From the NCBI GenBank assembly GCA_024998685.1, contig JACOEH010000048.1, forward strand, positions 1 through 36,087: 36,087 nucleotides of DNA, read 5' to 3'. Within the stretch, counting starts at the first letter, position 1. Every line of letters starts with the position of its first letter. This DNA is from Nitrospira sp. (lineage in GTDB: Bacteria > Nitrospirota > Nitrospiria > Nitrospirales > Nitrospiraceae). The notes under the pieces are model-generated. The model saw nothing but the letters and a program-made list of their open reading frames with translations, had not been told where the DNA came from and made no database searches. Position numbers and translations under genes: made by a program. Below are positions 2,241-27,430 of the stretch, in pieces.

Positions 2241-2439
2241 CTTAACTCGCATTATTCATGACGGTTCGTGGCGAAATCGCGCAGTCGCGTAGCGAGACGG
2301 GCACGCGGAGCCCCTAGGAACCGAGGCATACTTGAAACAGTATGTCGAGGTTGCGAGGGGCGAGCCTGCCCGCCGAAGGCTCGTCGCAGCAGCGAATCCG
2401 CGATTGCAGCAGAAGCGTTCATGAATAATGCGGGTTAAG
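2241..2439. repeat. 199-bp palindromic MITE-like/REP-like element
   Basis: The two ends are near-perfect inverted copies: CTTAACTCGCATTATTCATG at 2241-2260 and the reverse complement of CTTAACCCGCATTATTCATG at 2420-2439, one mismatch in 20. Complementarity continues inward imperfectly (CGGTTCGTGGCGAAATCGCG against the arm around 2395-2418), and a second nested hairpin sits in the middle (AACC...CATAC near 2319-2331, GTATG...GGTT near 2340-2352). It has no coding capacity. Size, terminal repeats and intergenic location fit a miniature inverted-repeat element or a large REP-type palindrome. Its mobility and source transposase are not shown here. Confidence 0.7.
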
Positions 2440-2564
2440 TACCTCTCTCATGGTAACACAGGGAAACGTTATCTATATTATGAGGGAAATCACTCGGGTG
2501 GAAAGCTGTACGGAGACGATTGCATCATTGACGGCTCTCTGTCAGACGGCCCGTAGTGAAATCT

Positions 2565-2787
2565 AAGGGGATTGTCTATCTCGAAGGCTCCGGTCAAGAA
2601 GATACAGCACGTCCCTGTTTTCCGGTTAAGCACGAGACCGGAATACGCTCAAGTGGGCTCAGACTGCGTGAGGAGCAGGAACCCGTATGGCAGCATTGGC
2701 ATAGTGGGCCCCGTCAGATGGCGTGTGACTCGAGTCTGTTCGGGGGCAATTCTCAACAAGAGATTTCAACTCGGTCAAAAGGCATAA
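2565..2787 (+). pseudogene. Possible remnant of heat-shock repressor HrcA C-terminus
   Basis: No intact gene lies in 2440-2774. One frame reads RPEYAQVGSDC followed by NPYGSIGIVGPVR, which resembles the end of HrcA, where an IGxEN...DCS stretch precedes GtiGViGPtRM. A nearby frame reads GIVYLEG, resembling the IYxxG segment that lies earlier in HrcA. The two pieces are in different frames and too close together, and no start or DNA-binding domain is present. If the match is real, this is a frameshifted, internally deleted fragment without function. It is a by-eye resemblance only; it could be chance. Confidence 0.3.
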
Positions 2788-3947
2788 AGTGGGCCCGTTC
2801 CGAGGGTTGAGAGCTGTCCTTCGATCCCGACAACAACGACACGCCCAAGAAAGAAAGGCAATCCCCAGTCGAAGGTAGAAGACGGTCCGCCTAAATTATT
2901 GAAGACAGCGTTGCCCGTGTGTATGAGGGTAGCCGTATTCGCAACCTGAAATGAGACGGCCGCTTGACGACCATTAACACCAAGAAGCGTGGCCGACAAG
3001 TTGGCTGCCGCAGGGGGACAGAAAAAATCTTGTAACGGCATGGGGCAAACCGGAAGGGTCGAATCAGGGAAAAAATAGCCATTAGACCCGGTGTCAATAA
3101 AGCTCTGCGCGAAGGTTGTGCCGTTGTAGATCATAGTGAGAAATCCGTTTTGATCAGTTGAAAAGGTCGAGATGCCGGGCGGCGGGGAATTATTCGGTGC
3201 TGTGCCGATCCCGAAAGTGACGGAACCGGAGAGTGCCGGAGCGCCCATCGCGGGCACATTCGGCAGAGTCAGGACTATGCCATTCTTATCGGATGGAAGC
3301 AGCCACACCGGGTTCTGTACTTGAGTGGACAGAGGTGCCACGATACTTCCGCATGTAGAAGCGACACAGGAAAAATACAGGTTATTGTTGTCGTTGATTT
3401 CACAGATAGTGCCGCAATCGTGCGTGAACAGCCCGATACCGAGAATGCCGTTGAAACCTGCCATGAGCGGATCGGAGTCGACCACACTGTTACACGGATT
3501 TTGGGAGGAGGACTGCCCGGCAAAGGTGGGAGCAATAACATGAATGGGGACGGTTACGGCAGGCTCGCCGGCCAGCACCACATCCGCAAGTTGAACTGCG
3601 CCCCAAAGAGCGCTGCCATCGACAAACGACACGCACTCGCCGACGAGGTGTCCCGGCGATTCGATTTCTTGTTGTAGCGGGATTGAGAGTACCGAGCCGA
3701 AGATACGAACGCCGATGGAACCTGTATCAACCAAGATGTCGGAGATCGTTTGACAAACGGAGGTGCCTGGGCGACAGATGGTTACTTGAGTGCATACTTC
3801 ATCGACATTCGTACAGACGCTCGAGCCCCCAACCGTCACCGTCAGAACATTGGGCGGCGGCGGACCGACGACTCCGTTTCCGCTGCCACCGGAGCCACAT
3901 GCGCTCACAAACCATAGACCGACGATAAGGAACGCGCGATACGGCAT
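2775..3947 (-). CDS. DUF3443 family lipoprotein with pepsin-like double DTGS motif
   Basis: 390-residue exported protein. The start at 3947 is chosen because it gives a lipoprotein signal (MPYRAFLIVGLWFVSAC, lipobox VSAC, Cys17) and overlaps the stop of the upstream gene in a TAATG junction. A GSG- and P-rich linker follows the lipid anchor. The body matches the DUF3443 family (VDTGSIGVRIF ... ECVSFVDGS.LWG). Two copies of a DTGS motif are visible, at about residues 74-77 and 285-288, plus FNGILGIG near 165-172 and a hydrophobic-hydrophobic-Gly run (VVVVGIEG) near the end. This is the arrangement of bilobal aspartic peptidases, so a periplasmic or surface protease role is plausible but inferred. 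Many Cys residues suggest disulfides. It is paired with the DUF2844 gene. Confidence 0.85.
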   Translation of the reverse strand: MPYRAFLIVGLWFVSACGSGGSGNGVVGPPPPNVLTVTVGGSSVCTNVDEVCTQVTICRPGTSVCQTISDILVDTGSIGVRIFGSVLSIPLQQEIESPGHLVGECVSFVDGSALWGAVQLADVVLAGEPAVTVPIHVIAPTFAGQSSSQNPCNSVVDSDPLMAGFNGILGIGLFTHDCGTICEINDNNNLYFSCVASTCGSIVAPLSTQVQNPVWLLPSDKNGIVLTLPNVPAMGAPALSGSVTFGIGTAPNNSPPPGISTFSTDQNGFLTMIYNGTTFAQSFIDTGSNGYFFPDSTLPVCPMPLQDFFCPPAAANLSATLLGVNGRQAAVSFQVANTATLIHTGNAVFNNLGGPSSTFDWGLPFFLGRVVVVGIEGQLSTLGTGPLYAF

Positions 3948-4411
3948 TATTGAATGTCCTTCGGCGACACCATAGCCGGTAAACGAGATGGGATAAAGGC
4001 CCGCCCCCACATATTTCTTGCGTGTCCGCTTCGCTCAACGACCAAATCGGCGGTTTTCAACATCAGAGGTCTTCGAATTCGAGGTTTCTTATTCTGCAGC
4101 TCCGTGAGTGCGTCCAAATACTCATCAAAATATGCGCCGAGGAGGAGGCGGAGATTCGGAGCCCCGGTCCCTCTCCAGGCGACCGCGAAGACGGTACCGT
4201 CCGATGAGACATATTCCTTGATACTCATCCCGGCAACCGTGATGGTTTCAACCGAATATCCCTGAGCAAGTTTGCTTTGCACCTGTCCGCCTATGGCGGC
4301 GCGGTCCTTTTCAATGGATGCCTTTGCCTGACCTAGGACCGCCCAGACCGGTGCAATAGCAGTCAGATGAATTAGACTCGTCATGAGTATGGTATAAACC
4401 CACGTTCCCAT
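3947..4411 (-). CDS. DUF2844 domain exported protein
   Basis: About 154 residues from ATG at 4411; a longer TTG start at 4438 is possible and has GGAGGG close by. The N-terminus is a signal peptide (MGTWVYTILMTSLIHLTAIAPVWA). The mature part has the family pattern: AIGGQVQSKLAQGYSVETITVAG, then EYVSSDGTVFAVAWRG and LLLGAYFDEYLDAL. DUF2844 proteins are small exported proteins of unknown function that often sit next to DUF3443 genes. Here the two genes overlap by one base (TAATG), pointing to translational coupling and a joint role. The last ~55 residues are basic and extend past the core domain. Confidence 0.85.
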   Translation of the reverse strand: MGTWVYTILMTSLIHLTAIAPVWAVLGQAKASIEKDRAAIGGQVQSKLAQGYSVETITVAGMSIKEYVSSDGTVFAVAWRGTGAPNLRLLLGAYFDEYLDALTELQNKKPRIRRPLMLKTADLVVERSGHARNMWGRAFIPSRLPAMVSPKDIQ

Positions 4412-4792
4412 CGTCTCGTTACGATCTTCGCCCTCCAATCCCTTCGTTCACCAGCGATAAATCAGCGTCGCTCCTGATGGTTCTGCCGACCAGGGTAATT
4501 CGACTAGCTGACCATTATACTGAAAGTCTCTCCCGCTATGCTGCGTGCGCATGGCGCGCCATCCGCGGCTGTTGGCCCCCCATGGTCCCATGCCATTGTC
4601 CAGCGGAACCGCTGGAGACTCGCGAATAGCTCGCCGTCAGTGTGACAGGTGACTTTTGATAAATGGGCCGTGTATGGTTGGCTCTTGAGCTTTAATCGAT
4701 CCACGACTTCTGCGCATGACTTCAGATTTGCCACTAGCCTTGATTGTCTCATCCCAGGTATGCTCTACGAGTCCATGGTGGGAGATTACGTA
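4412..4792. other. Intergenic region between divergent genes, no gene seen
   Basis: 381 bp between the leftward DUF2844 gene and the rightward exported-protein gene. Open frames in it (for example 4504-4752 minus, and the in-frame extension of the downstream gene back to 4649) lack recognisable domains and ribosome binding sites. It presumably holds both promoters; I could not assign convincing -35/-10 pairs. Confidence 0.5.
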
Positions 4793-6107: not shown

Positions 6108-6551
6108 GTGCCACACGACTCCCACCACTTCGTTTTTGAGATTGATCGTGCCATACGTATGCAGGTTGTTGAAAAGCTGGAGGCATCACCGGAGCTGAAG
6201 CTGAGTGAAAGCGTAGCTCCGCAGCTCAAAGGAGTGTATGTTCTTTACTGGAAAGGGAAACTTATCTATGCCGGAAAAGCTTTGCATACTACTCTCAGGA
6301 GGCGTCTGGCGGAACATGCAAAAAAAATAGCCGGCAGGAGCAACGTATCGCTAGAAGAGATTACGTGTCGATTTTTGACGATAGAAAGTGATTGGTTTGT
6401 GAGAGCTGCCGAGGATGCCTTGATAACCAACTATAAGCCGTTATGGAACTTAAGCGGTTTCGGTAGTCACGTACCCGGGAAAGGGCGCCCGGGTATTCGA
6501 GTGAGCAAATGGGATAAGGACTTTCCGTTGCGGAATCCTAACGCTTCCTGA
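6108..6551 (+). CDS. GIY-YIG restriction endonuclease, Eco29kI-like
   Basis: 147-residue GIY-YIG nuclease. The catalytic pattern is GVYVLY (42-47, for GIY), IYAGKA (53-58, for YIG), Arg in LRRRLAEHAK (63-72), Glu102 (AAEDALI) and Asn114 (PLWN), followed by a GFGSHVPGKGRPG tail (117-129). That tail, and the conserved CRF segment before it, are typical of the Eco29kI family of type II restriction enzymes. It is shorter than Eco29kI (about 210 residues), lacking insertions rather than catalytic parts. The GTG start at 6108 is the first possible one after an in-frame TAA and retains the FVFEIDRAI helix. It runs tail-to-tail into the methyltransferase with a 14-base overlap, as expected of a restriction-modification pair. 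Cut site unknown. Confidence 0.85.
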   Translation: MPHDSHHFVFEIDRAIRMQVVEKLEASPELKLSESVAPQLKGVYVLYWKGKLIYAGKALHTTLRRRLAEHAKKIAGRSNVSLEEITCRFLTIESDWFVRAAEDALITNYKPLWNLSGFGSHVPGKGRPGIRVSKWDKDFPLRNPNAS

Positions 6552-7962
6552 GGATGACCGCACTTTCATAGAGTGATCCCAAGCTTTGCAGGCCGCGTCT
6601 CACCGACGATTTCGTAATGCTTGCTCCTACGCGCTTTTTTCGGAGAGGGACAATACGTTCAAGACGTAACCCATTTGTCTCTGCAATATCCGCAAGAATC
6701 CGATCCGTGGCGATGTTGAGCCCCTGGATAATAGAATTGCCGATCACGACGACTCCCGCGCCGCCTCTTCTCAGTACTCTTCGAAGGATCTGCGCGAACC
6801 GATTGCAGTCGTTAAAATATGTGGTGACGTAGTTAGCCCATCCCTCTCCACCATAGGCTCCGGCATCGGTTCGTATCTCGCGAAGTTCTGCGATGAGAGT
6901 TTTCAGACCATGGTGCTCACAAGCGAGTGAAATAGGATCGGCGTTGCGCACTGTTTGCCAGAACTTGCCGAAATTATCTTCTTCAAGACGATGCAGCTCT
7001 CTGGGTGATGTTACGAAAGAGAGCCAAAACAAATGAGGCCTCGTGTTGCGAATATAGTGGTAATTATTCATGTACGGCGGAGAGGTGATCATTAAATCCA
7101 CCGATCCACTGGGCAGTTCGCCATTGACTGCGAGAAAGTTCTTTGTGTAAATCTCCCGTCTCTCGTTGCCGATGTCCCTTTGATGGACATGTAACCACCG
7201 CACATCAGCGAGGATCTCTTCCAGTTTTTCGTTCACTATGGATGCAACATCAGCGTCCTCTAATAGAGGCTTGCCTGCTCCCGGCCGTGAGGATAGGCTT
7301 GGTTCATAACTATAGTTGGAAACTCCAACCAGCACGGCACCAAGCGCAATTCTGCCAAGGTCGGCTACCTCTCTGTGAGGGTACGTATCGAGAAGCCGAA
7401 GGATATTCAGAATTTGCGGCTCTATTCGTTCAGAAAAGAAAGGGATTCGTGAAACGAATTCGGTCGGTCGATAGCGCGTAAGGTTCGGGTGATGATCCTT
7501 CCATAGCTGAGATTCTTGGCGAATGGCCTGTATCAGCTCGGCTATTTTAGCGGGAGCAAGTTCAGTAGCAGAGAGTTTGACACGCGCTGCAAGTGATGCA
7601 TAGGGATTGATCTCGAAGCCGACGGTGTCATACCCGTGAAGAAGTGCTTCGACAAGAGTTGTGCCTACACCGGCAAACGGATCTAGGACTAGAGGGCGGC
7701 GTAGTTTGCTTTGCTTCGGGAGGAACTCTCGGAAAGCATCTTGAATGAATTGTCCACTAAACCCAGCTATCCATGGCACCCATCGATGGATCGGCACCCT
7801 ACGGTTTCCCATGAACGCCGGGTCTCGAAACATGGCTTTGGGTTTGGTTGATCGGGAAACGGTCGGCATTGCGGGCGGGAGTCTAACGCAACATTTGGTA
7901 GTCGTCAAGGAACTAATATCCAATATGTCGTTGTGCAAAACGAACTGAGCGATCAATTTCAT
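6538..7962 (-). CDS. DNA methyltransferase (N4-cytosine/N6-adenine type) of the R-M pair
   Basis: Up to 474 residues; the true start could also be an internal ATG at 7869 (MPTVSRS). SAM-binding motif I is DPFAGVGTT (94-102) with the following acidic FEINPYAS, and catalytic motif IV is TSPPY (293-297), giving the I-before-IV order. TSPPY is used by amino-methyltransferases that modify exocyclic N4-C or N6-A, not C5 of cytosine. Eco29kI itself pairs with a C5 enzyme, so this nuclease/methylase combination differs from the prototype. The region between the motifs (about 130-285) may be the target-recognition part. Its 3' end overlaps the nuclease gene by 14 bases. Role: protects host DNA from the adjacent nuclease. 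Confidence 0.9.
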   Translation of the reverse strand: MKLIAQFVLHNDILDISSLTTTKCCVRLPPAMPTVSRSTKPKAMFRDPAFMGNRRVPIHRWVPWIAGFSGQFIQDAFREFLPKQSKLRRPLVLDPFAGVGTTLVEALLHGYDTVGFEINPYASLAARVKLSATELAPAKIAELIQAIRQESQLWKDHHPNLTRYRPTEFVSRIPFFSERIEPQILNILRLLDTYPHREVADLGRIALGAVLVGVSNYSYEPSLSSRPGAGKPLLEDADVASIVNEKLEEILADVRWLHVHQRDIGNERREIYTKNFLAVNGELPSGSVDLMITSPPYMNNYHYIRNTRPHLFWLSFVTSPRELHRLEEDNFGKFWQTVRNADPISLACEHHGLKTLIAELREIRTDAGAYGGEGWANYVTTYFNDCNRFAQILRRVLRRGGAGVVVIGNSIIQGLNIATDRILADIAETNGLRLERIVPLRKKRVGASITKSSVRRGLQSLGSLYESAVILRKR

Positions 7963-13818: not shown

Positions 13819-16800
13819 ATGTTGCGGGTCGTCACCGGCCGGTTTCATCCTGATCTGGAATCTGCTCTGGTTGAGCACATCACGTGTGTCAAGGCAACTG
13901 ATCCGCTTGCGCCTATTGCGATCTTCGTTCCCTCCAAGCTGTTAGCCGATCGCCTTCGCGTCTTGTTCGCCGTTGAACACCGGCTGTCGCTCCTGAACCT
14001 CCACGTATTGACCTTTCATCAATTGGCCCTGCGGCTGGCTGGAGAGGTCACCGCTGTTCATCCGTTGCCGCGGATCGTTGACGAGCTGTTTTTTGAACAA
14101 TTGGTTCGTCATATTGTCCGCAACAAACTCACCAATCAGGCTCCCTTACAACGAATCGGGCACTCCTCCGGGACATGGGGCGCACTCTGGGCGACCATTC
14201 ACGACTTGAAGGATGCCGATGTCGATCCAGCGCGAGCACTGCAAGGACTCCGTGAAGGTTATTTCGAGGAAGACGATAAGGAGTGGCTCGGTGCGCTCAT
14301 TTCACTCTATGCGGCAGTCAAGGAAGCGGGCAAGGCGCTCCGGGTCGGGACGTCGGACGATCTGGCTGAGGCGCTCATCCCGTTCGCCCAGACGGCCTCG
14401 TTTCTCCAGCCGTTGAGCGAAGTATTGTATTACGGGTTCTATGACCTGACGCAGGTGCAGCTGTCTCTCTTTGAAACCGTCAGCCGAGTGAAGGAGACGA
14501 CGCTCTTTTTCCCGCTTGAGGATGATCCGGCCTGTGGATTCGCGAGGCGCTTTTTCGATCGATATATCCGGCCTCTGGTGAAGTCGGACGGGGCGATGAT
14601 CCGATTGAAACAGGAATCATCCGGTGCGGCCTCACCTTCGGTCCAACTCTCCATACGGAGTGTGATCGGGGCGGAAGAAGACTTGGCGACAACTTGCCGC
14701 ACGATTCTCGATCTGGTCGAAACACACGGCTATCGATTCGGCGAGATCGGCGTCATCGCCCGCACGCTCGATCCCTATGGCTTGTATCTTCAGTCGATCT
14801 TCGATCGCCATCGCATTCCCTTTTGTACGACCGCGTCACGGCCGTTGATCCAAGAACCGATCTGTAAACTCGTCCTGCAGCTGGCGTCCTTGCCGTTGAA
14901 CGATTTGTATCGCGCGTCGGTTCTCGATGTGGTGACGTCTCCGCTCTACGTCACCGATTTGTATGACGAGCGGTCGGAGTCATACCGACCTGAACAGTGG
15001 AGGGTACTTGCCCAAACCTTGCACATCATGCATGGAGCCGAGGAGTGGAAACGATTGGAGCAGGCGAGCCAAGCTGCAGTGATTCTCAATGGCGATGAGG
15101 GTCTCATCGGCTCCTCGGTCATTGCGCCGGAGGTCGTCAATTTACTGTGGCAGGTGGTTTCACAACTTATGCAAGACTGTTCGGCCCTTCCCTCGCGAGG
15201 CATGATCGGCCGGATGGCCGCAGCTTGTCGAGCACTCATTGATCGGCGTCTGCGCCGGCCCAATGCGGCGACATCGATTGCCGAGGAAGTTCAGCTCGCC
15301 CCCCAAGCGGCGACATGGGACGCCATCGACCGAATTTGGATGACCCTCTCGGAATTGGAGCCGCTCAATGAGGAGATGACGTGGGCTGAATTCGTCGAAT
15401 TACTGACGCATGCCTTCGAACGGACGACGAAGCCTTTCCACAATGGCTCATCTCAAGGAGTCATGGTGTGCGACGTCATGGCGGCTCGCGGGGTACCGTT
15501 CAGAGCTCTGTTCGTCCTCGGTCTGAACGAGAAAGTATTTCCGCGTTATATCAGAGAGGACGCGTTTCTGCGGGATTGCCATCGGCTGGTGCTCGACGCC
15601 ACGCTCGGATTTAAAATCGACGAGAAGTTGATTGCCTATGAAGAAGAGACGTTGCTCTTTCACCTGTGCTGTCAGGCTGCCTCTCAGCGCTTGTATCTGT
15701 TCTATCAACGGGCCGATGAATCGGGGCGCATGCTGGCCGTCTCTCCTTATCTTGGAGAAGCCTGTCGTCGGTTCAGCCATGACGAACAGTCGATAGATGT
15801 GGTGCCTCGTCGCTTGACGGATCGGACCTTGCATCGGCCGACGATCAAACTGTTCCTATCGCCGACTGAACTGACTCAGTGGTTGGCGATCAATGGACAA
15901 GACCCGACAGATCTCATGCTGGCACTCGGGCGTGATGCGGATACGTTCCGCCATGCGGCATCGGCGCTCGGTCGAATTGAAGAGGACGGCTCAATGCTGA
16001 CGCTCTTCGATGGAATAACAGGGGCGGTCGAGTCTCATTGGGCGAGGGTCATCGAACGGGGTCTCGCCCCTACACCGCTTGAACGGTATGCCCATTGTCC
16101 TTTTCAATATTTTGCCGCTGATGTGCTGCGCCTCGAACCGAGCCGTGTTCCAATGGGGCAGGAAACGGACGCCGCATTGGTCGGTACGCTCTGCCACGCG
16201 GCGTTACGTCGTTGCTATGAACGGCTCGTGCAGGCCGGATGGCCGACCGTACCAGCGGCGGACAACGTCAATCAGACGATCCGCGCGTCGGTGGAACAGG
16301 CGGCGGCGGACTTGGAGTCACAGCATCAGACAGGCCACTATCTCTTATGGGAATTGGCGAAAGAACTGATCGTGACGTTGGTGACTGCGGCGGTGAAGGC
16401 GGATGAAATAGAACAGGCCGAGCATCCGTACCAGCCTATTGCCTTTGAAGTGGATGGAGAAGGAATGGTTCCCGGCATCCTCGACGAAGGATCGTTGAAG
16501 ATCCGTGGTCGCATCGATCGGCTCGATCGGAACCGGATCTCCGGCGCCCTCCGCGTAATAGACTACAAGTTCAAAGCGGGTTCCGCCATGAAACCGGAAG
16601 ACCGCCATTTGGCTCAGTCGGCGGTGCGTGGATATCGGCTGCAACCCCCGCTCTACGGTTGCCTCACCGTTTCCGGACAATCCACACCGAGGCAGGTGCA
16701 GTTCCTGTTTCTCGCTCCCCAGTGGTCAACGGCAATCAGTCGCTCGACGTTTGAGGTCACGTCATGGTCATCCGATACCGGCACACTCATTCAGAGCACG

Positions 16801-16986
16801 ATCAGAACGTTGGTGGACGGCATCCGTGCCGGACGATTTTTTATTCTTCCGGACGGCTCTTGCGACGGATGTGACTTTCGTGTGGTCTGTCGGCGAGAAC
16901 ATGCGCCGACTTGGTGGAGAACTCATCGTGCGGCCGAACCCAAAACGCTGAAAATGCTGCGCCTGCAGAAGAATGCCGACGAATAA
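13819..16986 (+). CDS. addB: AddB-type exonuclease subunit (PD-(D/E)XK nuclease with Fe-S cluster)
   Basis: 1055 residues. AddB works with AddA in an ATP-dependent helicase-nuclease that resects double-strand breaks for RecA. The N-terminal part has the inactivated helicase fold (IFVPSKLLADRL, LHVLTFHQLALRL, VMAARGVPFRALFVLGLNEKVFP) without a Walker A lysine. The C-terminal nuclease has RIDRLD and VIDYKFKAG (Asp915, Lys917) followed by GYRLQPPLY. Four cysteines frame it as in Fe-S AddB proteins: Cys760 (AHCPFQYF) and Cys1015-x2-Cys1018-x5-Cys1024. The ribosome site is weak, suggesting coupling to the short gene just upstream. The 3' end overlaps addA by 14 bases. Confidence 0.88.
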   Translation: MLRVVTGRFHPDLESALVEHITCVKATDPLAPIAIFVPSKLLADRLRVLFAVEHRLSLLNLHVLTFHQLALRLAGEVTAVHPLPRIVDELFFEQLVRHIVRNKLTNQAPLQRIGHSSGTWGALWATIHDLKDADVDPARALQGLREGYFEEDDKEWLGALISLYAAVKEAGKALRVGTSDDLAEALIPFAQTASFLQPLSEVLYYGFYDLTQVQLSLFETVSRVKETTLFFPLEDDPACGFARRFFDRYIRPLVKSDGAMIRLKQESSGAASPSVQLSIRSVIGAEEDLATTCRTILDLVETHGYRFGEIGVIARTLDPYGLYLQSIFDRHRIPFCTTASRPLIQEPICKLVLQLASLPLNDLYRASVLDVVTSPLYVTDLYDERSESYRPEQWRVLAQTLHIMHGAEEWKRLEQASQAAVILNGDEGLIGSSVIAPEVVNLLWQVVSQLMQDCSALPSRGMIGRMAAACRALIDRRLRRPNAATSIAEEVQLAPQAATWDAIDRIWMTLSELEPLNEEMTWAEFVELLTHAFERTTKPFHNGSSQGVMVCDVMAARGVPFRALFVLGLNEKVFPRYIREDAFLRDCHRLVLDATLGFKIDEKLIAYEEETLLFHLCCQAASQRLYLFYQRADESGRMLAVSPYLGEACRRFSHDEQSIDVVPRRLTDRTLHRPTIKLFLSPTELTQWLAINGQDPTDLMLALGRDADTFRHAASALGRIEEDGSMLTLFDGITGAVESHWARVIERGLAPTPLERYAHCPFQYFAADVLRLEPSRVPMGQETDAALVGTLCHAALRRCYERLVQAGWPTVPAADNVNQTIRASVEQAAADLESQHQTGHYLLWELAKELIVTLVTAAVKADEIEQAEHPYQPIAFEVDGEGMVPGILDEGSLKIRGRIDRLDRNRISGALRVIDYKFKAGSAMKPEDRHLAQSAVRGYRLQPPLYGCLTVSGQSTPRQVQFLFLAPQWSTAISRSTFEVTSWSSDTGTLIQSTIRTLVDGIRAGRFFILPDGSCDGCDFRVVCRREHAPTWWRTHRAAEPKTLKMLRLQKNADE

Positions 16987-19900
16987 CGGTCTATCGATAG
17001 CGGATCGCACGGCTCGAGAATCGGCGGAGACGACATTCGATCGCAACGTCGTCGTTGTGGCCGGGGCGGGGACCGGTAAGACGACCTTGCTCGTGAATCG
17101 TCTCGTGTATCTCATTATGAAGGAGCCGGCTCCGGCGCCCATCACGCAGGTCGTGGCGTTGACATTCACCAACAAGGCGGCGACCGAAATGAAAGTGCGG
17201 TTGCGCGAACGACTTGCCGTACTCGCACGTCCGGAGGCCGATTCGATACGGTCGAGCGATGGGGGGGGCGTCTCATACGGCGATCTTCAAGCACGGTACA
17301 GGCTGAGTGTCGACGAGATCGCCGCGCGTGCGCAGGCGGCGCTCAACGACATTGAAAAGGCGCAGATCGGCACCCTCCACAGTTTCGCCGCGCACTTGCT
17401 ACGACTCCATCCGCTGGAAAGCGGAGTCGATCCTGATTTCAAAGAAGACGACGGCTTGCGGTTCGAAGAGCAGTTCACCGCCGCGTGGGATTGCTGGCTC
17501 GATCAGGAATTGAGCCGAGCCGGACAACACCATCATCTGTGGCGATCGGTGTTGTCGACGACTCCTCTCGAGGCGGTCAGAGCATTGTGCCGATCTTTGT
17601 GCAGCGAATTGGTCGATCTCGGCACTCTGCACCGACAACTCACCTCGACGGCGATGACCGCGGCCGTCGCGCGGTGGATTCAGCACATGGAAGACCGGGC
17701 GAATCAACTCATGAAAGCGTATGACCGGCCGAAGCGCCGTAAGGTCGAGCGCATGCTCGCTGCGGCGGCGTCTGTGATGCGGCTCGTGGCGGAAAAGGGG
17801 CTGGCGGGTCGGCAAGGCTTGACGGCGGTAGAACGAGGATGGCTCGACAAGGATCTCGGTAACGTTGTGGGTGAATGGGAGAAGGGCGATTTCAAAGAGG
17901 CTGCCGCGCTTATCCGGGCGGCGAAACAGCTTCTGTCGGTCGATCATGCATTCTTGAACGATCTCTTGACCCTGCTCCTTCCGCCGGCGCGGAACATTCG
18001 CGAAACCTTTTCTCGCCAGGGCTGGCTTTCGTTTGATGGGTTGCTGGCACGTGCACGAACGCTCCTCTTCGAACATCCGGCCGTCCGTGAACGGATTAAA
18101 AGGGATTATCGGGCCGTGTTGGTCGATGAATTTCAGGACACGGACCCGGTGCAGTATGAAATCATCCTTGCGGTCTCGGAGCGACAGGGCAGTCATGCGG
18201 CCGACTGGCACGAGATGCCGCTCGAACCAGGGAAGCTATTCATTGTAGGAGACCCCAAACAATCGATCTATGCCTTTCGGCGTGCCGACATCGAAGCCTT
18301 TGATCGGGTTATGGAGAAAATCATAGCTGACGGTGGAATCGCTTGCACGTTGACGACGAACTTTCGAAGCGACGCGGCCGTCTTGGAGCCGGTGAATGAG
18401 GTCTTCGATCGGCTGTTCGAGCGGAAGCCGCTGATCCAGCCGGCGAATGTCCGCCTGGAGGTGCGTCCTCAGCGACGCCCGGCGTCGATCGAGCCGGGCG
18501 TTCGACTCAGCGTGACGGCGCCGGATGGTGAAGAAGAGGCATTCGATGCGGCAGGGGCGACGAGAGCCGAGAGCGAAGTATTGGCTCGCTGGTTGACCGA
18601 CGAGGTCCTGAATCGTCCTTCAGTGAAACCGGGCCATGTGGCGCTGCTGTTTAGAAAGCTCACGCAAGCCGATGCCTATCTCGATGCCTTGCGCCGGTAT
18701 GACATTCCCTACGTCATCGAGGGGGAAAAGCATTTCTATCGCCGCCAAGAGGTGATCGATCTGGTCAATCTGCTGCGGGTCCTGGACCATCCTCATGACG
18801 AGATCGCGTTGACCGGTCTCCTTCGTTCACCGCTGGGCGGTCTGACAGATCGGGAACTCTATGAGCTCAAACAAGCGGGGCATTTCAATTATCTTCGCGC
18901 GGCGCGGCTGGAGGGATGGCCCCAAGCTTGTGCCGTTGCTGTTCGGCGACTGTACGAACACCTGGCTTGGCTGCATCGGGCCGTTCCTGTGCTGCCGTTG
19001 GTCGAGGCCATCGAGCTGATGTTTGATCGATTGCCGATCCTGGACTTGGCTGCCGCATCGCTCCATGGCGAACAAGCCGTGGCGAATCTCATGAAGGTGA
19101 AACAGACGGCTGCGTCCTTGGCCGATCGACCCCACATGACCCTGAGTGGATTTGTGGACCTCATGATCGCCCGGCTGGAAGAACAACCGGACGAATCGGA
19201 GAGCCCTCTCGCCGAGGAGTCGCTCGAAGCCGTGCATGTCTTGACGATTCATAAGGCCAAAGGATTGGAATTTCCCATTGTTGTGCTGCCGGGACTCCAT
19301 CAGGGGAGCGGACGAGAACGCGATGTGCCGCAGATCTCTTACGATTGGTCGAGCGAAACCTATGGACTTTCCCTGGACCATCATTGGTCGCTCGGCGCGC
19401 TGCTGGTTCAACACAAGCTGCGGCTGCGAGAAGAGGCGGAACGGCGGCGTGTGCTCTATGTGGGAATGACCAGGGCCAAAGAATTGTTGCTGTTGTCGGG
19501 AGGGATCACGACCCGCTCGGTCGGTGAAACGGTTTTCGACCTGCTGCAGAACATCGGTACAGGGGAAATCGGGACCGCTTCAACCGAGGCCTTGAAGGTC
19601 GGCGGATGTACGATTCCACATCGAGTTATCAAAGCACCGGAACGGAAGCGGCCCCGACGACGTGTGGAGAGAGCGTCCGGTGCGGCATTGATTGATTCGA
19701 AGGAGATTGCCGAGCGGTGGAAAATAAGAACGGCTCGATGGACCGAGATTCGTGAGACCCCGCGTCATCTGACGCCCACGGCGCTGGGCAAGCGAGCGGC
19801 GTCGGTCATACGTAAGACGACTCCGGTTCGACAGGATGCGGAGATCGGTCGGTTGGCCGGTGTTGCGGCCCACCGTCTGCTCGAGCGATGGGATTTTTCA

Positions 19901-20326
19901 CAAGACCCTTCCGGATTATTTGCTCAGGTTGCCGTAGCCGTTCAGGCAACTCTTGAGTCGGACGACCAGTTCCATGCTGGAGCGGTCGCTGAATCCGTGA
20001 ACGATCTCCTTGCGACGTTCAGCCGATCGGAAGCCTATGCTCGTCTCCGTGCATCTCAGATCCTTGGCCGAGAGGTTCCGTTCATCATGCCGTGGGGGAG
20101 CAGGCAGATGATAGAAGGGATCATCGACCTCATTTACCGGATGCAGGGAGAGCTCTGGATAGCCGACTATAAGACGGACGCGATATCGGCTGATCAGGCA
20201 GCGGCACGGGCTGAGCAGTACCGCATACAGAGTGAAGTCTATAAGGCTGCCGTCAAACAGAGCCTCGGAACTGAACCACGGTTTCACTGTCTATTCCTTC
20301 GTTGTGCGACGGCGGTAGAATTATGA
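16973..20326 (+). CDS. addA: AddA-type helicase-nuclease subunit (UvrD/RecB family)
   Basis: 1117 residues; its ATG lies inside the last codons of addB (14-base overlap). SF1A helicase motifs in order: I, VVVAGAGTGKTTLL (28-41); Ia, ALTFTNKAATEM; II, LVDEFQDTDPVQ (about 384); III, GDPKQSIYAFRRAD (about 424); IV, TTNFRS; V, VHVLTIHKAKGLEFP (about 755); VI, RRVLYVGMTRAKELL. The C-terminal RecB-like nuclease is intact: His in AAHRLLERW, EGIIDLIY and WIADYKTD (Asp1065, Lys1067), then QYRIQSEVYKAA. So both AddA and AddB keep active nuclease sites, giving a two-nuclease AddAB enzyme. Acts in the cytoplasm on DNA ends. Confidence 0.92.
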   Translation: MPTNNGLSIADRTARESAETTFDRNVVVVAGAGTGKTTLLVNRLVYLIMKEPAPAPITQVVALTFTNKAATEMKVRLRERLAVLARPEADSIRSSDGGGVSYGDLQARYRLSVDEIAARAQAALNDIEKAQIGTLHSFAAHLLRLHPLESGVDPDFKEDDGLRFEEQFTAAWDCWLDQELSRAGQHHHLWRSVLSTTPLEAVRALCRSLCSELVDLGTLHRQLTSTAMTAAVARWIQHMEDRANQLMKAYDRPKRRKVERMLAAAASVMRLVAEKGLAGRQGLTAVERGWLDKDLGNVVGEWEKGDFKEAAALIRAAKQLLSVDHAFLNDLLTLLLPPARNIRETFSRQGWLSFDGLLARARTLLFEHPAVRERIKRDYRAVLVDEFQDTDPVQYEIILAVSERQGSHAADWHEMPLEPGKLFIVGDPKQSIYAFRRADIEAFDRVMEKIIADGGIACTLTTNFRSDAAVLEPVNEVFDRLFERKPLIQPANVRLEVRPQRRPASIEPGVRLSVTAPDGEEEAFDAAGATRAESEVLARWLTDEVLNRPSVKPGHVALLFRKLTQADAYLDALRRYDIPYVIEGEKHFYRRQEVIDLVNLLRVLDHPHDEIALTGLLRSPLGGLTDRELYELKQAGHFNYLRAARLEGWPQACAVAVRRLYEHLAWLHRAVPVLPLVEAIELMFDRLPILDLAAASLHGEQAVANLMKVKQTAASLADRPHMTLSGFVDLMIARLEEQPDESESPLAEESLEAVHVLTIHKAKGLEFPIVVLPGLHQGSGRERDVPQISYDWSSETYGLSLDHHWSLGALLVQHKLRLREEAERRRVLYVGMTRAKELLLLSGGITTRSVGETVFDLLQNIGTGEIGTASTEALKVGGCTIPHRVIKAPERKRPRRRVERASGAALIDSKEIAERWKIRTARWTEIRETPRHLTPTALGKRAASVIRKTTPVRQDAEIGRLAGVAAHRLLERWDFSQDPSGLFAQVAVAVQATLESDDQFHAGAVAESVNDLLATFSRSEAYARLRASQILGREVPFIMPWGSRQMIEGIIDLIYRMQGELWIADYKTDAISADQAAARAEQYRIQSEVYKAAVKQSLGTEPRFHCLFLRCATAVEL

Positions 20327-26258: not shown

Positions 26259-27430
26259 GGAAGGTCTGATTTATTCTCCTTACGCACTGTGCTAAGGGTA
26301 GTGCAGCACTGAACGGGAGGCGCACCCATGGAGCAACACACATTTGCCGAGGTCACGTTTGAACGGTATCGCAAGCCCACTCGCGGGGAACGATTTCTCG
26401 ACGAAATGACCCGCGTCGTGCCGTGGGCGGACCTGGCCGCCGTGATTGAGCCGTTTTATCCCAAGCCAGAGGGCGCGGGACGGCCGCCGGTGGGCGTCGA
26501 CCGCATGCTGCGCCTGCATTGTCTGCAACCGTGGTTCAACCTGTCGGACCCGGCGGTGGAGGAGGCGCTGTACGACTCACGTGCCATGCGGCAATTCGTC
26601 GGCATTGATCTGGGCCGCGAGCCTGTGCCGGATGAGACGACGATCTGCAAGTTTCGCCACCTGCTGGAAACCCACCAGGTGGGCAAAGAGCTCTTTGCGC
26701 GGATCGGCGCGTATCTGGCCGCTCAGGGTCTGAAAGTGAGCCGGGGGACCATCGTGGATGCCACCATGATTGCGGCCCCCAGTTCGACGAAGAATCGCCG
26801 GAAGGAGCGGGATCCGGAGATGCATCAGACGAAGAAGAGCAACCAGTGGTATTTTGGCATGAAAGCTCATATTGGGGTGGATAGTCGAACCAAGCTGATC
26901 CACTCCGTGGCCGCCACTGCAGCGAATGTGCATGACAGCCAGGTGTTGCCGGATCTGCTGCATGGACAGGAGACGCGGGTGTGGGGGGACTCCGCCTATA
27001 GCGGGCAACGCGACGTCATCCGGCACCACGCTCCCGATGCCAAGAGCTTTATCCAGACCAAAGCCCATCGCCATCGCCCTCTGAGTGAGGTGGAGCGGGC
27101 CCGCAATCGCACGAAGTCGAAGGTCCGTGCGAAAGTCGAACATGCGTTCTTGGTGATCAAGCGGCTCTTTGGATGGGCCAAAGTCCGGTACCGTGGGTTG
27201 GTGAAGAATACCCACTGGCTGTTCATCAGCTGCGGCCTGGCGAATCTGTACGTGGTGCGCCGGCGCTTGTTGGCAGGGGGCTAGCGAGCATGGGTGTGAC
27301 GGGGGGCAGTCCGATGGCAGACGAACCCCGATCAAGAGACTCTCGGACCGGCGACTTTCCGGCTGATTGCCCGTGCTGATCCATCCAGAAACAGACTTCT
27401 TCGTGCAAAGGTGAATTAATCAGACGTTCC
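26259..27430 (+). mobile_element. IS5-family insertion sequence, apparently intact
   Basis: About 1172 bp. Terminal inverted repeats: GGAAGGTCTGATTTATTC at the left (26259-26276) against GGAACGTCTGATTAATTC read inward from the right end (27430-27413), two mismatches in 18. CTTA occurs at 26254-26257 on the left (one extra T before the repeat) and at 27431-27434 directly after the right end, a likely target duplication of the IS5 type. It carries one full transposase gene. It inserted between the IS630 relic and a regulator gene, truncating the latter. Confidence 0.85.
26328..27284 (+). CDS. IS5-family transposase
   Basis: 318 residues, GGGAGG 8 bases before the ATG. N-terminal DUF772-type domain (RYRKPTRGERFLDEMTRVVPWADL ... 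GRPPVGVDRMLRLHCLQPWFNLSDPAVEEALYDS), then the DDE core: GTIVDATMIAAPSS (first Asp), WGDSAYSG (second Asp) and the C1 region YxxRxxxxKxE seen as RNRTKSKVRAKVEHAFLVIKRLFG (Glu). Every catalytic residue is present and the frame is unbroken, so the element may still move. Confidence 0.95.
   Translation: MEQHTFAEVTFERYRKPTRGERFLDEMTRVVPWADLAAVIEPFYPKPEGAGRPPVGVDRMLRLHCLQPWFNLSDPAVEEALYDSRAMRQFVGIDLGREPVPDETTICKFRHLLETHQVGKELFARIGAYLAAQGLKVSRGTIVDATMIAAPSSTKNRRKERDPEMHQTKKSNQWYFGMKAHIGVDSRTKLIHSVAATAANVHDSQVLPDLLHGQETRVWGDSAYSGQRDVIRHHAPDAKSFIQTKAHRHRPLSEVERARNRTKSKVRAKVEHAFLVIKRLFGWAKVRYRGLVKNTHWLFISCGLANLYVVRRRLLAGG

What the first reader, a model, noticed from the sequence alone, without database searches (positions are those of the whole stretch)
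2775..3947. DUF3443 lipoprotein looks like a bacterial bilobal pepsin-type aspartic protease
Seen: two DTGS motifs about 211 residues apart (VDTGSIG near 74, IDTGSNG near 285), FNGILGIG after the first, and a hydrophobic-hydrophobic-Gly run near the end. Known: pepsin-family (A1) enzymes have one D(T/S)G per lobe, a DGILGLG-like segment and an hhG motif in each lobe. Inference: this outer-membrane lipoprotein may be an active surface or periplasmic aspartic protease, with DUF2844 as helper or inhibitor. Bacterial pepsin homologues are rare.
Basis: partly seen in the sequence, partly recalled or inferred. Interest (0 to 1): 0.62.

Follow-up and report, generated by a model that had tools for sequence, protein, structure and literature searches.

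The report
Bacterial lipoprotein with pepsin fold
A bacterial protein family of unknown function is predicted to fold like the stomach enzyme pepsin, keeps both catalytic residues in every full-length copy examined, and nearly always travels with the same small partner gene, so it is probably an unrecognised cell-envelope protease.

Summary
Window 2775-3947 (minus strand) encodes a 390-aa lipoprotein of Pfam DUF3443 with DTGS at residues 74-77 and 285-288. An AlphaFold2 model on 81 sequences (pLDDT 91.5, pTM 0.90) matches aspartic proteases of family A1 in all 50 rows shown (best Z 23.3, 276 residues, 3.0 A, both lobes). In 123 full-length homologues, 42 of them found by profile search, both Asp and both psi-loop glycines are among only 13 invariant columns. 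The flap position is Phe (108) or Tyr (15). None of 81 members matches the Pfam A1 profile, so it joins the pepsin clan by predicted fold, not family A1 by sequence. Activity is untested; 14 of 123 have a changed DTG, always with Asp kept. DUF2844 is a dedicated partner: in 299 Pseudomonadota genomes the two families, over cut-off, mark the same 7 genomes with equal copy numbers. Its model has no clear fold match and its role is unknown. No held paper names DUF3443, DUF2844 or PF11925. Verdict: probably a new exported, cysteine-rich bacterial family of the pepsin clan.

The parts
2775..3947 (-). DUF3443 gene, 390 aa; predicted pepsin-fold lipoprotein (mature domain about residues 31-390)
   Evidence: Translation, Pfam DUF3443 E 2.9e-117, AF2 model, fold comparison
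3897..3947 (-). Lipoprotein signal peptide, M1 to lipobox VSA|C17
   Evidence: Read from the translation; a crude lipobox pattern matched 73 of 81 members of A1, at least two of these matches (L010, L022) looking false
3717..3728 (-). N-lobe catalytic motif D74-T-G-S77
   Evidence: Asp in 123 of 123 full-length homologues; DTG in 110 of 123
3594..3635 (-). Flap hairpin, residues 105-118, with aromatic F108 (inferred position of pepsin Tyr75)
   Evidence: Model strands 100-107 and 112-124; position 108 Phe 108, Tyr 15 of 123; a profile alignment pairs F108 with a Tyr of the bacterial A1 homologue L141
3438..3449 (-). N-lobe psi-loop motif G167-I-L-G170
   Evidence: G170 in 123 of 123
3084..3095 (-). 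C-lobe catalytic motif D285-T-G-S288
   Evidence: Asp in 123 of 123; D(T/S)G in 122 of 123
2850..2870 (-). Likely C-lobe psi-loop motif D360-W-G362-L-P-F-F
   Evidence: G362 in 123 of 123; FILGMPFF in L098 and L107; assigned by eye
3947..4411 (-). DUF2844 gene, secreted partner (likely ATG start at 4411; frame open to TTG 4438)
   Evidence: Pfam DUF2844 E 6e-34; paired with DUF3443 in relatives
3945..3949 (-). TAATG overlap of the DUF2844 stop and the DUF3443 start (translational coupling inferred)
   Evidence: Sequence

Best explanation
The gene encodes a lipid-anchored cell-envelope aspartic endopeptidase of the pepsin clan (clan AA), a family separate from A1 at the sequence level. Export and lipidation at C17 (inferred) place a two-lobed domain outside the inner membrane, most likely on the outer membrane. 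Each lobe gives one Asp (D74, D285) to a dyad in the cleft, held by two psi-loops and covered by a flap with F108; a water activated by the dyad cuts peptide bonds (inferred from predicted fold and conservation). The residue after the C-lobe motif Gly, Asp303 in pepsin, is here Leu363, which suggests a pH optimum nearer neutral than pepsin's (inferred). The mature domain starts soon after the anchor, with no room for a pepsinogen-like N-terminal prosegment. The probably co-translated secreted DUF2844 protein is its dedicated partner, most likely for folding or for holding it inactive (inferred, the weakest step).
For: Pfam DUF3443. AF2 model pLDDT 91.5, pTM 0.90 on 81 natural sequences, no templates. 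Foldseek best E 5.1e-11, 305 matches at E<=0.001, the 50 listed all A1 enzymes. VIA Z 23.3 to 1wkr (276 of 340, 3.0 A) and 21.8 to human pepsin 1pso (264, 2.8 A), all 50 listed rows A1, range 31-390. 123 of 123 keep D74, D285, G170 and G362; they form 97 clusters at 80% identity. Sequence bridges: 14 of 81 members match Asp_protease_2 (best E 6.6e-5, L050, N-lobe, 24.0 bits) and 3 of 81 match PE-PGRS_C (best E 1.5e-6), of which L016 and L038 were seen singly, matching in the N-lobe. Profile comparison with three bacterial A1 homologues scores 34.6, against 20.7 for the reversed profile and a maximum of 21.8 in 100 column shuffles.
Against: No activity data. Foldseek TM-scores are moderate (query-normalised 0.43-0.52, target-normalised 0.46-0.60, rmsd 5.8-8.7 A in the 50 rows), so lobe orientation or inserts differ from pepsin. 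No PF00026 match in 81 of 81 members and no relevant PDB sequence hit. hhalign's own probabilities are low: 20.9% against the bacterial A1 set, 15.0% lobe against lobe, 0.2% against a second A1-like set. 14 of 123 have an altered D(T/S)G (N-lobe: DTM 5, DTA 4, DVG, DIG, DYG, DFG one each; C-lobe: DSA 1), Asp kept. The flap residue is Phe, not Tyr, in 108 of 123. The likely C-lobe motif has Asp, not a hydrophobic residue, at its first position in 115 of 123. Four of 80 loci have no DUF2844.
Confidence: 0.75

Rival explanations
1. A pepsin-fold protein that no longer cuts peptides (as plant TAXI inhibitors or pregnancy-associated glycoproteins, recalled) and instead binds a ligand or envelope component together with DUF2844.
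For: 14 of 123 have a changed DTG motif and the flap residue is mostly Phe; invariant Cys and Gly could be kept for the fold alone; no activity is known.
Against: Both Asp are kept in 123 of 123 at median pairwise identity 44%, whereas loss of one Asp is usual in non-catalytic relatives (recalled). The flap position is aromatic in 123 of 123.
Confidence: 0.17
2. DUF3443 is an enzyme and DUF2844 is its substrate, not its helper: the pair is a processing system in which the lipoprotein matures DUF2844.
For: Near one-to-one pairing in genomes, overlapping genes, DUF2844 apparently secreted (N-terminal hydrophobic stretch).
Against: No cleavage site was sought or shown; conserved DUF2844 columns are spread over its whole length, not gathered at one site.
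Confidence: 0.12
3. A retropepsin-like (A2) enzyme, single-lobed and dimeric.
For: Weak Asp_protease_2 matches in 14 of 81 members.
Against: Two Asp-bearing lobes in one chain, full-length alignment to bilobal A1 structures; the residue after the N-lobe DTG is Ala, as in retropepsins, in only 4 of 123.
Confidence: 0.02

Closest known systems
Peptidase family A1 (pepsin, rhizopuspepsin, endothiapepsin, BACE1), Pfam PF00026
   Same: Predicted two-lobed fold over the whole mature chain, one D(T/S)G per lobe, GILG in the N-lobe, aromatic flap residue, exported
   Different: No PF00026 match in 81 members; Phe instead of Tyr on the flap in most; Arg81 where pepsin has Trp39 (by eye; pepsin numbering recalled); no room for an N-terminal prosegment; lipid anchor; DUF2844 partner
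Bacterial A1 homologues, shewasins among them (Rawlings and Bateman 2009, PMC2761423: passages and section 4 part 1; Leal 2016, PMC4814920: passages)
   Same: Bacterial, bilobal, both Asp; Leu at the Asp303 position, as the paper states for the Shewanella and Colwellia sequences; Leu-Pro after the C-lobe motif Gly, as in L141, L145 and L146
   Different: Those are described as having no signal peptide, a cytoplasmic location and no disulfide bridges; DUF3443 carries a lipoprotein signal and, in the window copy, 12 cysteines besides the anchor, three of them invariant in 123
PecA / PE_PGRS16 C-terminal domain, Pfam PF20729 (PMC6819658: passages)
   Same: Bacterial surface aspartic protease with DTG and DSG motifs; weak sequence matches in 3 of 81 DUF3443 members
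   Different: The two matches seen singly are below the curated cut-off (25.2 and 22.6 against 33 bits); PecA is a PE-domain protein of mycobacteria, not a lipoprotein
Secreted bacterial retropepsin-like enzymes RloA (PMC12239564: passages)
   Same: Exported bacterial aspartic proteases
   Different: Retropepsin-like dimers with Ala after DTG

Membership tests
Clan AA (pepsin-fold aspartic peptidases) | Pepsin-like fold | tested here: met
   AF2 model pLDDT 91.5; Z 21.2-23.3 to the 50 listed A1 chains. Predicted, not solved
Clan AA (pepsin-fold aspartic peptidases) | Catalytic Asp in D(T/S)G in each lobe | tested here: met
   Met in the window protein; Asp in 123 of 123 at both sites; full D(T/S)G in both lobes in 109 of 123
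Clan AA (pepsin-fold aspartic peptidases) | Two facing psi-loops | tested here: inconclusive
   The expected motif Gly, G170 and G362, are in 123 of 123, but the geometry was not measured: no coordinates available
Peptidase family A1 (PF00026) | Significant sequence match to the A1 profile | tested here: not met
   PF00026 is not among the 18 families matched by the 81 members at E<=10 (HMMER filters drop most weak matches)
Peptidase family A1 (PF00026) | Tyr75 on the flap | tested here: inconclusive
   Phe 108, Tyr 15 of 123 at the aligned position; PMC2761423 reports Phe there for some bacterial homologues
Peptidase family A1 (PF00026) | Hydrophobic-hydrophobic-Gly in the C-lobe | tested here: inconclusive
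   DWG in the window; first residue Asp in 115 of 123; FILG in divergent L098 and L107; Gly invariant
Peptidase family A1 (PF00026) | Pepstatin-sensitive endopeptidase activity | not testable with these tools
   Needs purified protein
PE-PGRS_C (PF20729) | Score over the curated cut-off | tested here: not met
   The window protein does not match at E<=10; 3 of 81 members match, L016 and L038 at 25.2 and 22.6 against 33 bits; the third was not seen singly
Asp_protease_2 (PF13650) | Score over the curated cut-off | tested here: not met
   The window protein does not match; best member L050 24.0 against 24.3 bits
DUF3443 (PF11925) | Score over the curated cut-off | tested here: met
   392.1 bits against 25
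Bacterial lipoprotein | Signal peptide with lipobox | tested here: met
   MPYRAFLIVGLWFVSAC read in the translation; no signal predictor was run and lipidation is not testable here

The most novel reading that the evidence does not exclude
DUF2844-DUF3443 is a two-gene zymogen: a lipid-anchored bacterial pepsin whose folding and inhibition prosegment has been moved into a separate, co-translated secreted protein (DUF2844), so that activity at the cell surface is switched by removing or cutting the partner.
Probability: 0.22. Interest if true: 0.78.

Novelty: new variant of a known kind. Interest (0 to 1): 0.62.

Why it matters
The bacterial pepsin homologues reported in 2009 were few and predicted to be cytoplasmic (PMC2761423), and the surface case that I found in print is mycobacterial PecA (PMC6819658). 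A scattered but widespread, exported, cysteine-rich family with the pepsin dyad would add a diverse bacterial branch to the question whether bilobal pepsins arose before or after eukaryotes, suggest a function for two DUF families at once, and offer envelope proteases of environmental bacteria such as Nitrospira and Geobacter relatives that can be assayed directly with pepstatin and Asp mutants.

Tried and rejected
A conserved neighbourhood beyond DUF2844: clustering 2222 neighbouring open frames of the 80 loci gave one cluster in 25 loci at scattered distances and the rest in 9 loci or fewer. Stop-to-stop frames on both strands were clustered, antisense ones included, so this is unreliable; dropped.

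A fold for DUF2844: model pLDDT 84.5; best Foldseek E 0.025 and best Z 6.9 at 5.2 A, no better than the background that the tool states. The rows include a BLIP-like protein and DUF2874 proteins (PepSY-like, recalled), but this is no evidence for an inhibitor.

PDB sequence hits: none for the window protein; the profile's two hits (nexin, isocitrate lyase) look like chance; the divergent member L098 hit nothing relevant.

A second bacterial A1-like set (A4: L142-L144) did not align meaningfully with DUF3443; the L141/L145/L146 set did in the N-lobe. Alignment A2, which mixed both sets, was put aside.

A retropepsin reading was rejected because both motifs lie in one chain; chance motif matches were rejected by conservation. 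No tree was built, so gain, loss and transfer of the family are open. The promoter and terminator scan of 2450-4700 gave nothing clear.

Full report
OBSERVATION. The minus-strand frame 2775-3947 encodes 390 residues and is a full-length Pfam DUF3443 (E 2.9e-117, residues 32-390). D74-T-G-S77 and D285-T-G-S288 are 211 residues apart, with FNGILGIG at 165-172. The chain begins MPYRAFLIVGLWFVSAC17GSGGSGNG: a lipoprotein signal with lipobox VSAC, then a Gly/Ser-rich stretch (read). A crude lipobox pattern matched 73 of 81 members of A1; the matches in L010 and L022 look false, and some of the eight misses (L008, L038, L042) look real. The DUF3443 gene is the only one found in the assembly. The closest relatives are five Nitrospira MAGs at 78-85% identity, so the window is probably from a Nitrospira (inference).

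FOLD. AlphaFold2 on the 81-row alignment A1 gave pLDDT 91.5 and pTM 0.90. Foldseek against the PDB: best E 5.1e-11, 305 matches at E<=0.001, and the 50 listed rows are all A1 enzymes (BACE1, rhizopuspepsin, endothiapepsin). TM-scores are moderate: 0.43-0.52 by query length, 0.46-0.60 by target length. VIA-align over Foldseek's candidates: Z 23.3, 276 aligned of 340, 3.0 A to the Irpex lacteus aspartic proteinase; Z 21.8, 264 aligned, 2.8 A to human pepsin; 566 of 998 chains at Z 8 or more; the listed matches span 31-390, that is both lobes. That the listed enzymes belong to family A1 is recalled. No coordinates were available, so the Asp-Asp distance and the psi-loops were not measured.

CONSERVATION. 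One search found 531 relatives with peptide patterns of the window protein and kept the best 80. Neither DTG segment is in those patterns, but FDWGLPFF is, so its invariance within A1 is biased. A second, less biased set came from searches with the Pfam profile: 42 full-length members not already in A1. Together these are 123 sequences, 97 clusters at 80% identity, median pairwise identity 44%. Thirteen columns are invariant: C58, C65, D74, G79, C105, G116, G170, P213, G223, G241, G246, D285 and G362. Both Asp and both psi-loop Gly are among them. Position 108 on the flap is Phe in 108 and Tyr in 15. Against: 14 of 123 have a changed D(T/S)G in one lobe, always with Asp kept. The divergent members L098 and L107 read DGILG in the N-lobe and FILG in the C-lobe, closer to pepsin's motifs than the window protein is.

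SEQUENCE LINKS. No member of A1 matches PF00026, but 14 of 81 match Asp_protease_2 and 3 of 81 match PE-PGRS_C, the aspartyl peptidase-like domain of mycobacterial PE_PGRS proteins (best E 6.6e-5 and 1.5e-6). L050 is the best Asp_protease_2 match (24.0 bits, cut-off 24.3, across its N-lobe); L016 and L038 match PE-PGRS_C across DTGS and flap at 25.2 and 22.6 bits (cut-off 33). Of the 81 members, 59 were scanned singly; the PE-PGRS_C match at 1.5e-6 was not among them. A profile comparison with three bacterial A1 homologues (L141, L145, L146) aligned the DTGS and flap region and paired F108 with a Tyr of L141. The score of 34.6 stands against 20.7 for the reversed profile and at most 21.8 in 100 column shuffles, though hhalign's own probability is only 20.9%. 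That this Tyr is pepsin's Tyr75 is my reading. Comparing the two lobes with each other pairs DTGSxGL with DSGSNGL (P 0.0018, probability 15.0%), as expected of a duplicated lobe.

PARTNER. DUF2844 (PF11005, E 6e-34) overlaps the start of DUF3443 (TAATG). A DUF2844 match lies in 76 of 80 loci: next to DUF3443 on the upstream side in 73, downstream in L022 and L024, and over two frames in L057; L030, L044, L052 and L077 have none. Among 73 later loci, which overlap with the first set and include partial copies, 62 have it; in L084, L090 and L091 it is also downstream. In 24 genomes chosen for holding DUF3443, copy numbers agree in 20; the exceptions are G211 (1 DUF3443, 0 DUF2844), G213 (3, 2), G056 (3, 1) and G120 (2, one of them weak, and 1). 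G204 has 7 and 7. In 299 Pseudomonadota genomes DUF3443 is over its cut-off in 7 and DUF2844 in the same 7, with equal copy numbers; one of them, G198, was the centre of the search and known to have it, and an eighth genome, G352, has only a sub-threshold DUF3443 match. In 198 Nitrospirota genomes 26 have DUF3443, 24 have DUF2844 and 23 have both; of the exceptions, G073 and G106 are matches at a contig's start, G093 and G100 weak matches. DUF2844 is thus a dedicated partner, though not quite without exception. Its model has no clear structural match.

DISTRIBUTION. DUF3443 is patchy: 26 of 198 Nitrospirota, 8 of 299 Pseudomonadota, 3 of 149 Acidobacteriota and 3 of 198 Desulfobacterota genomes. 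Each group includes a genome known beforehand to have it, and the phylum names are inferred from record titles of the loci. One search lists 18 other genomes of the window's genus without a match. PF00026 itself was found in 7 of 398 Pseudomonadota genomes, 6 over its cut-off. In 5 of 7 longer members scanned, one to four Big_2 Ig-like domains lie between the anchor and DUF3443 (L007, L011, L017, L025, L028), which would suit display away from the membrane (inference).

MECHANISM. Shown computationally: predicted fold, conservation, signal sequence, pairing. Inferred: lipidation, envelope location, dyad chemistry, near-neutral pH optimum (Leu at the Asp303 position; PMC2761423 discusses this residue and pH), disulfides, and the role of DUF2844. 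Pepsins usually need an N-terminal prosegment (recalled); the window protein has no room for one, and the partner could supply that function in trans. This is the boldest reading and is untested.

LITERATURE. Searches for DUF3443, DUF2844 and PF11925 each returned no paper, and a wider search for bacterial pepsin-like lipoproteins listed two papers with no sign of this family (listing only). The library lacks most subscription papers, and supplements were not searched. Bacterial A1 homologues were described as lacking signal peptides and disulfides (PMC2761423, passages and section 4 part 1); shewasin D is mainly cytoplasmic (PMC4814920, passages). PecA is a surface-associated aspartic protease (PMC6819658, passages). 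RloA proteins are secreted retropepsin-like enzymes (PMC12239564, passages). PMC11313796 (passages) describes the psi-loop.

VERDICT. The protein is best called a probable new family of the pepsin clan: exported, lipid-anchored and paired with DUF2844. It is new as a variant, not as a kind.

Noticed in passing
window 2241-2439: About 200-bp imperfect palindrome (48-nt arms, 77% complementary) with relatives elsewhere in the same assembly (97% at C13, 85% at C10); it looks like a miniature inverted-repeat element.
   Followed up: partly
window 6108-7962: Eco29kI-type restriction endonuclease (PF09517, + strand) next to a DNA methylase (PF01555, - strand), a likely restriction-modification pair.
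   Followed up: no
window 13819-20326: Two overlapping genes for a PD-(D/E)XK nuclease with a weak AddB N-terminal match and for a UvrD-type helicase-nuclease, probably an AddAB-like pair.
   Followed up: no
window 26328-27284: DDE transposase gene (PF01609).
   Followed up: no
L098 and L107 (genome G056): Divergent full-length DUF3443 copies (L098 is the least like the window protein, 30% identity) with ILG motifs in both lobes and no DUF2844 in the fetched stretch; possible intermediates to other pepsin-fold families.
   Followed up: partly
L156: Sub-threshold DUF3443 match (19.9 bits) in an open frame of 4118 aa, not confirmed by a profile of A1.
   Followed up: no
L022, L024 and L084: Gene order is reversed, DUF2844 downstream of DUF3443, and the N-lobe motif reads DTM; the two changes may go together.
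   Followed up: partly
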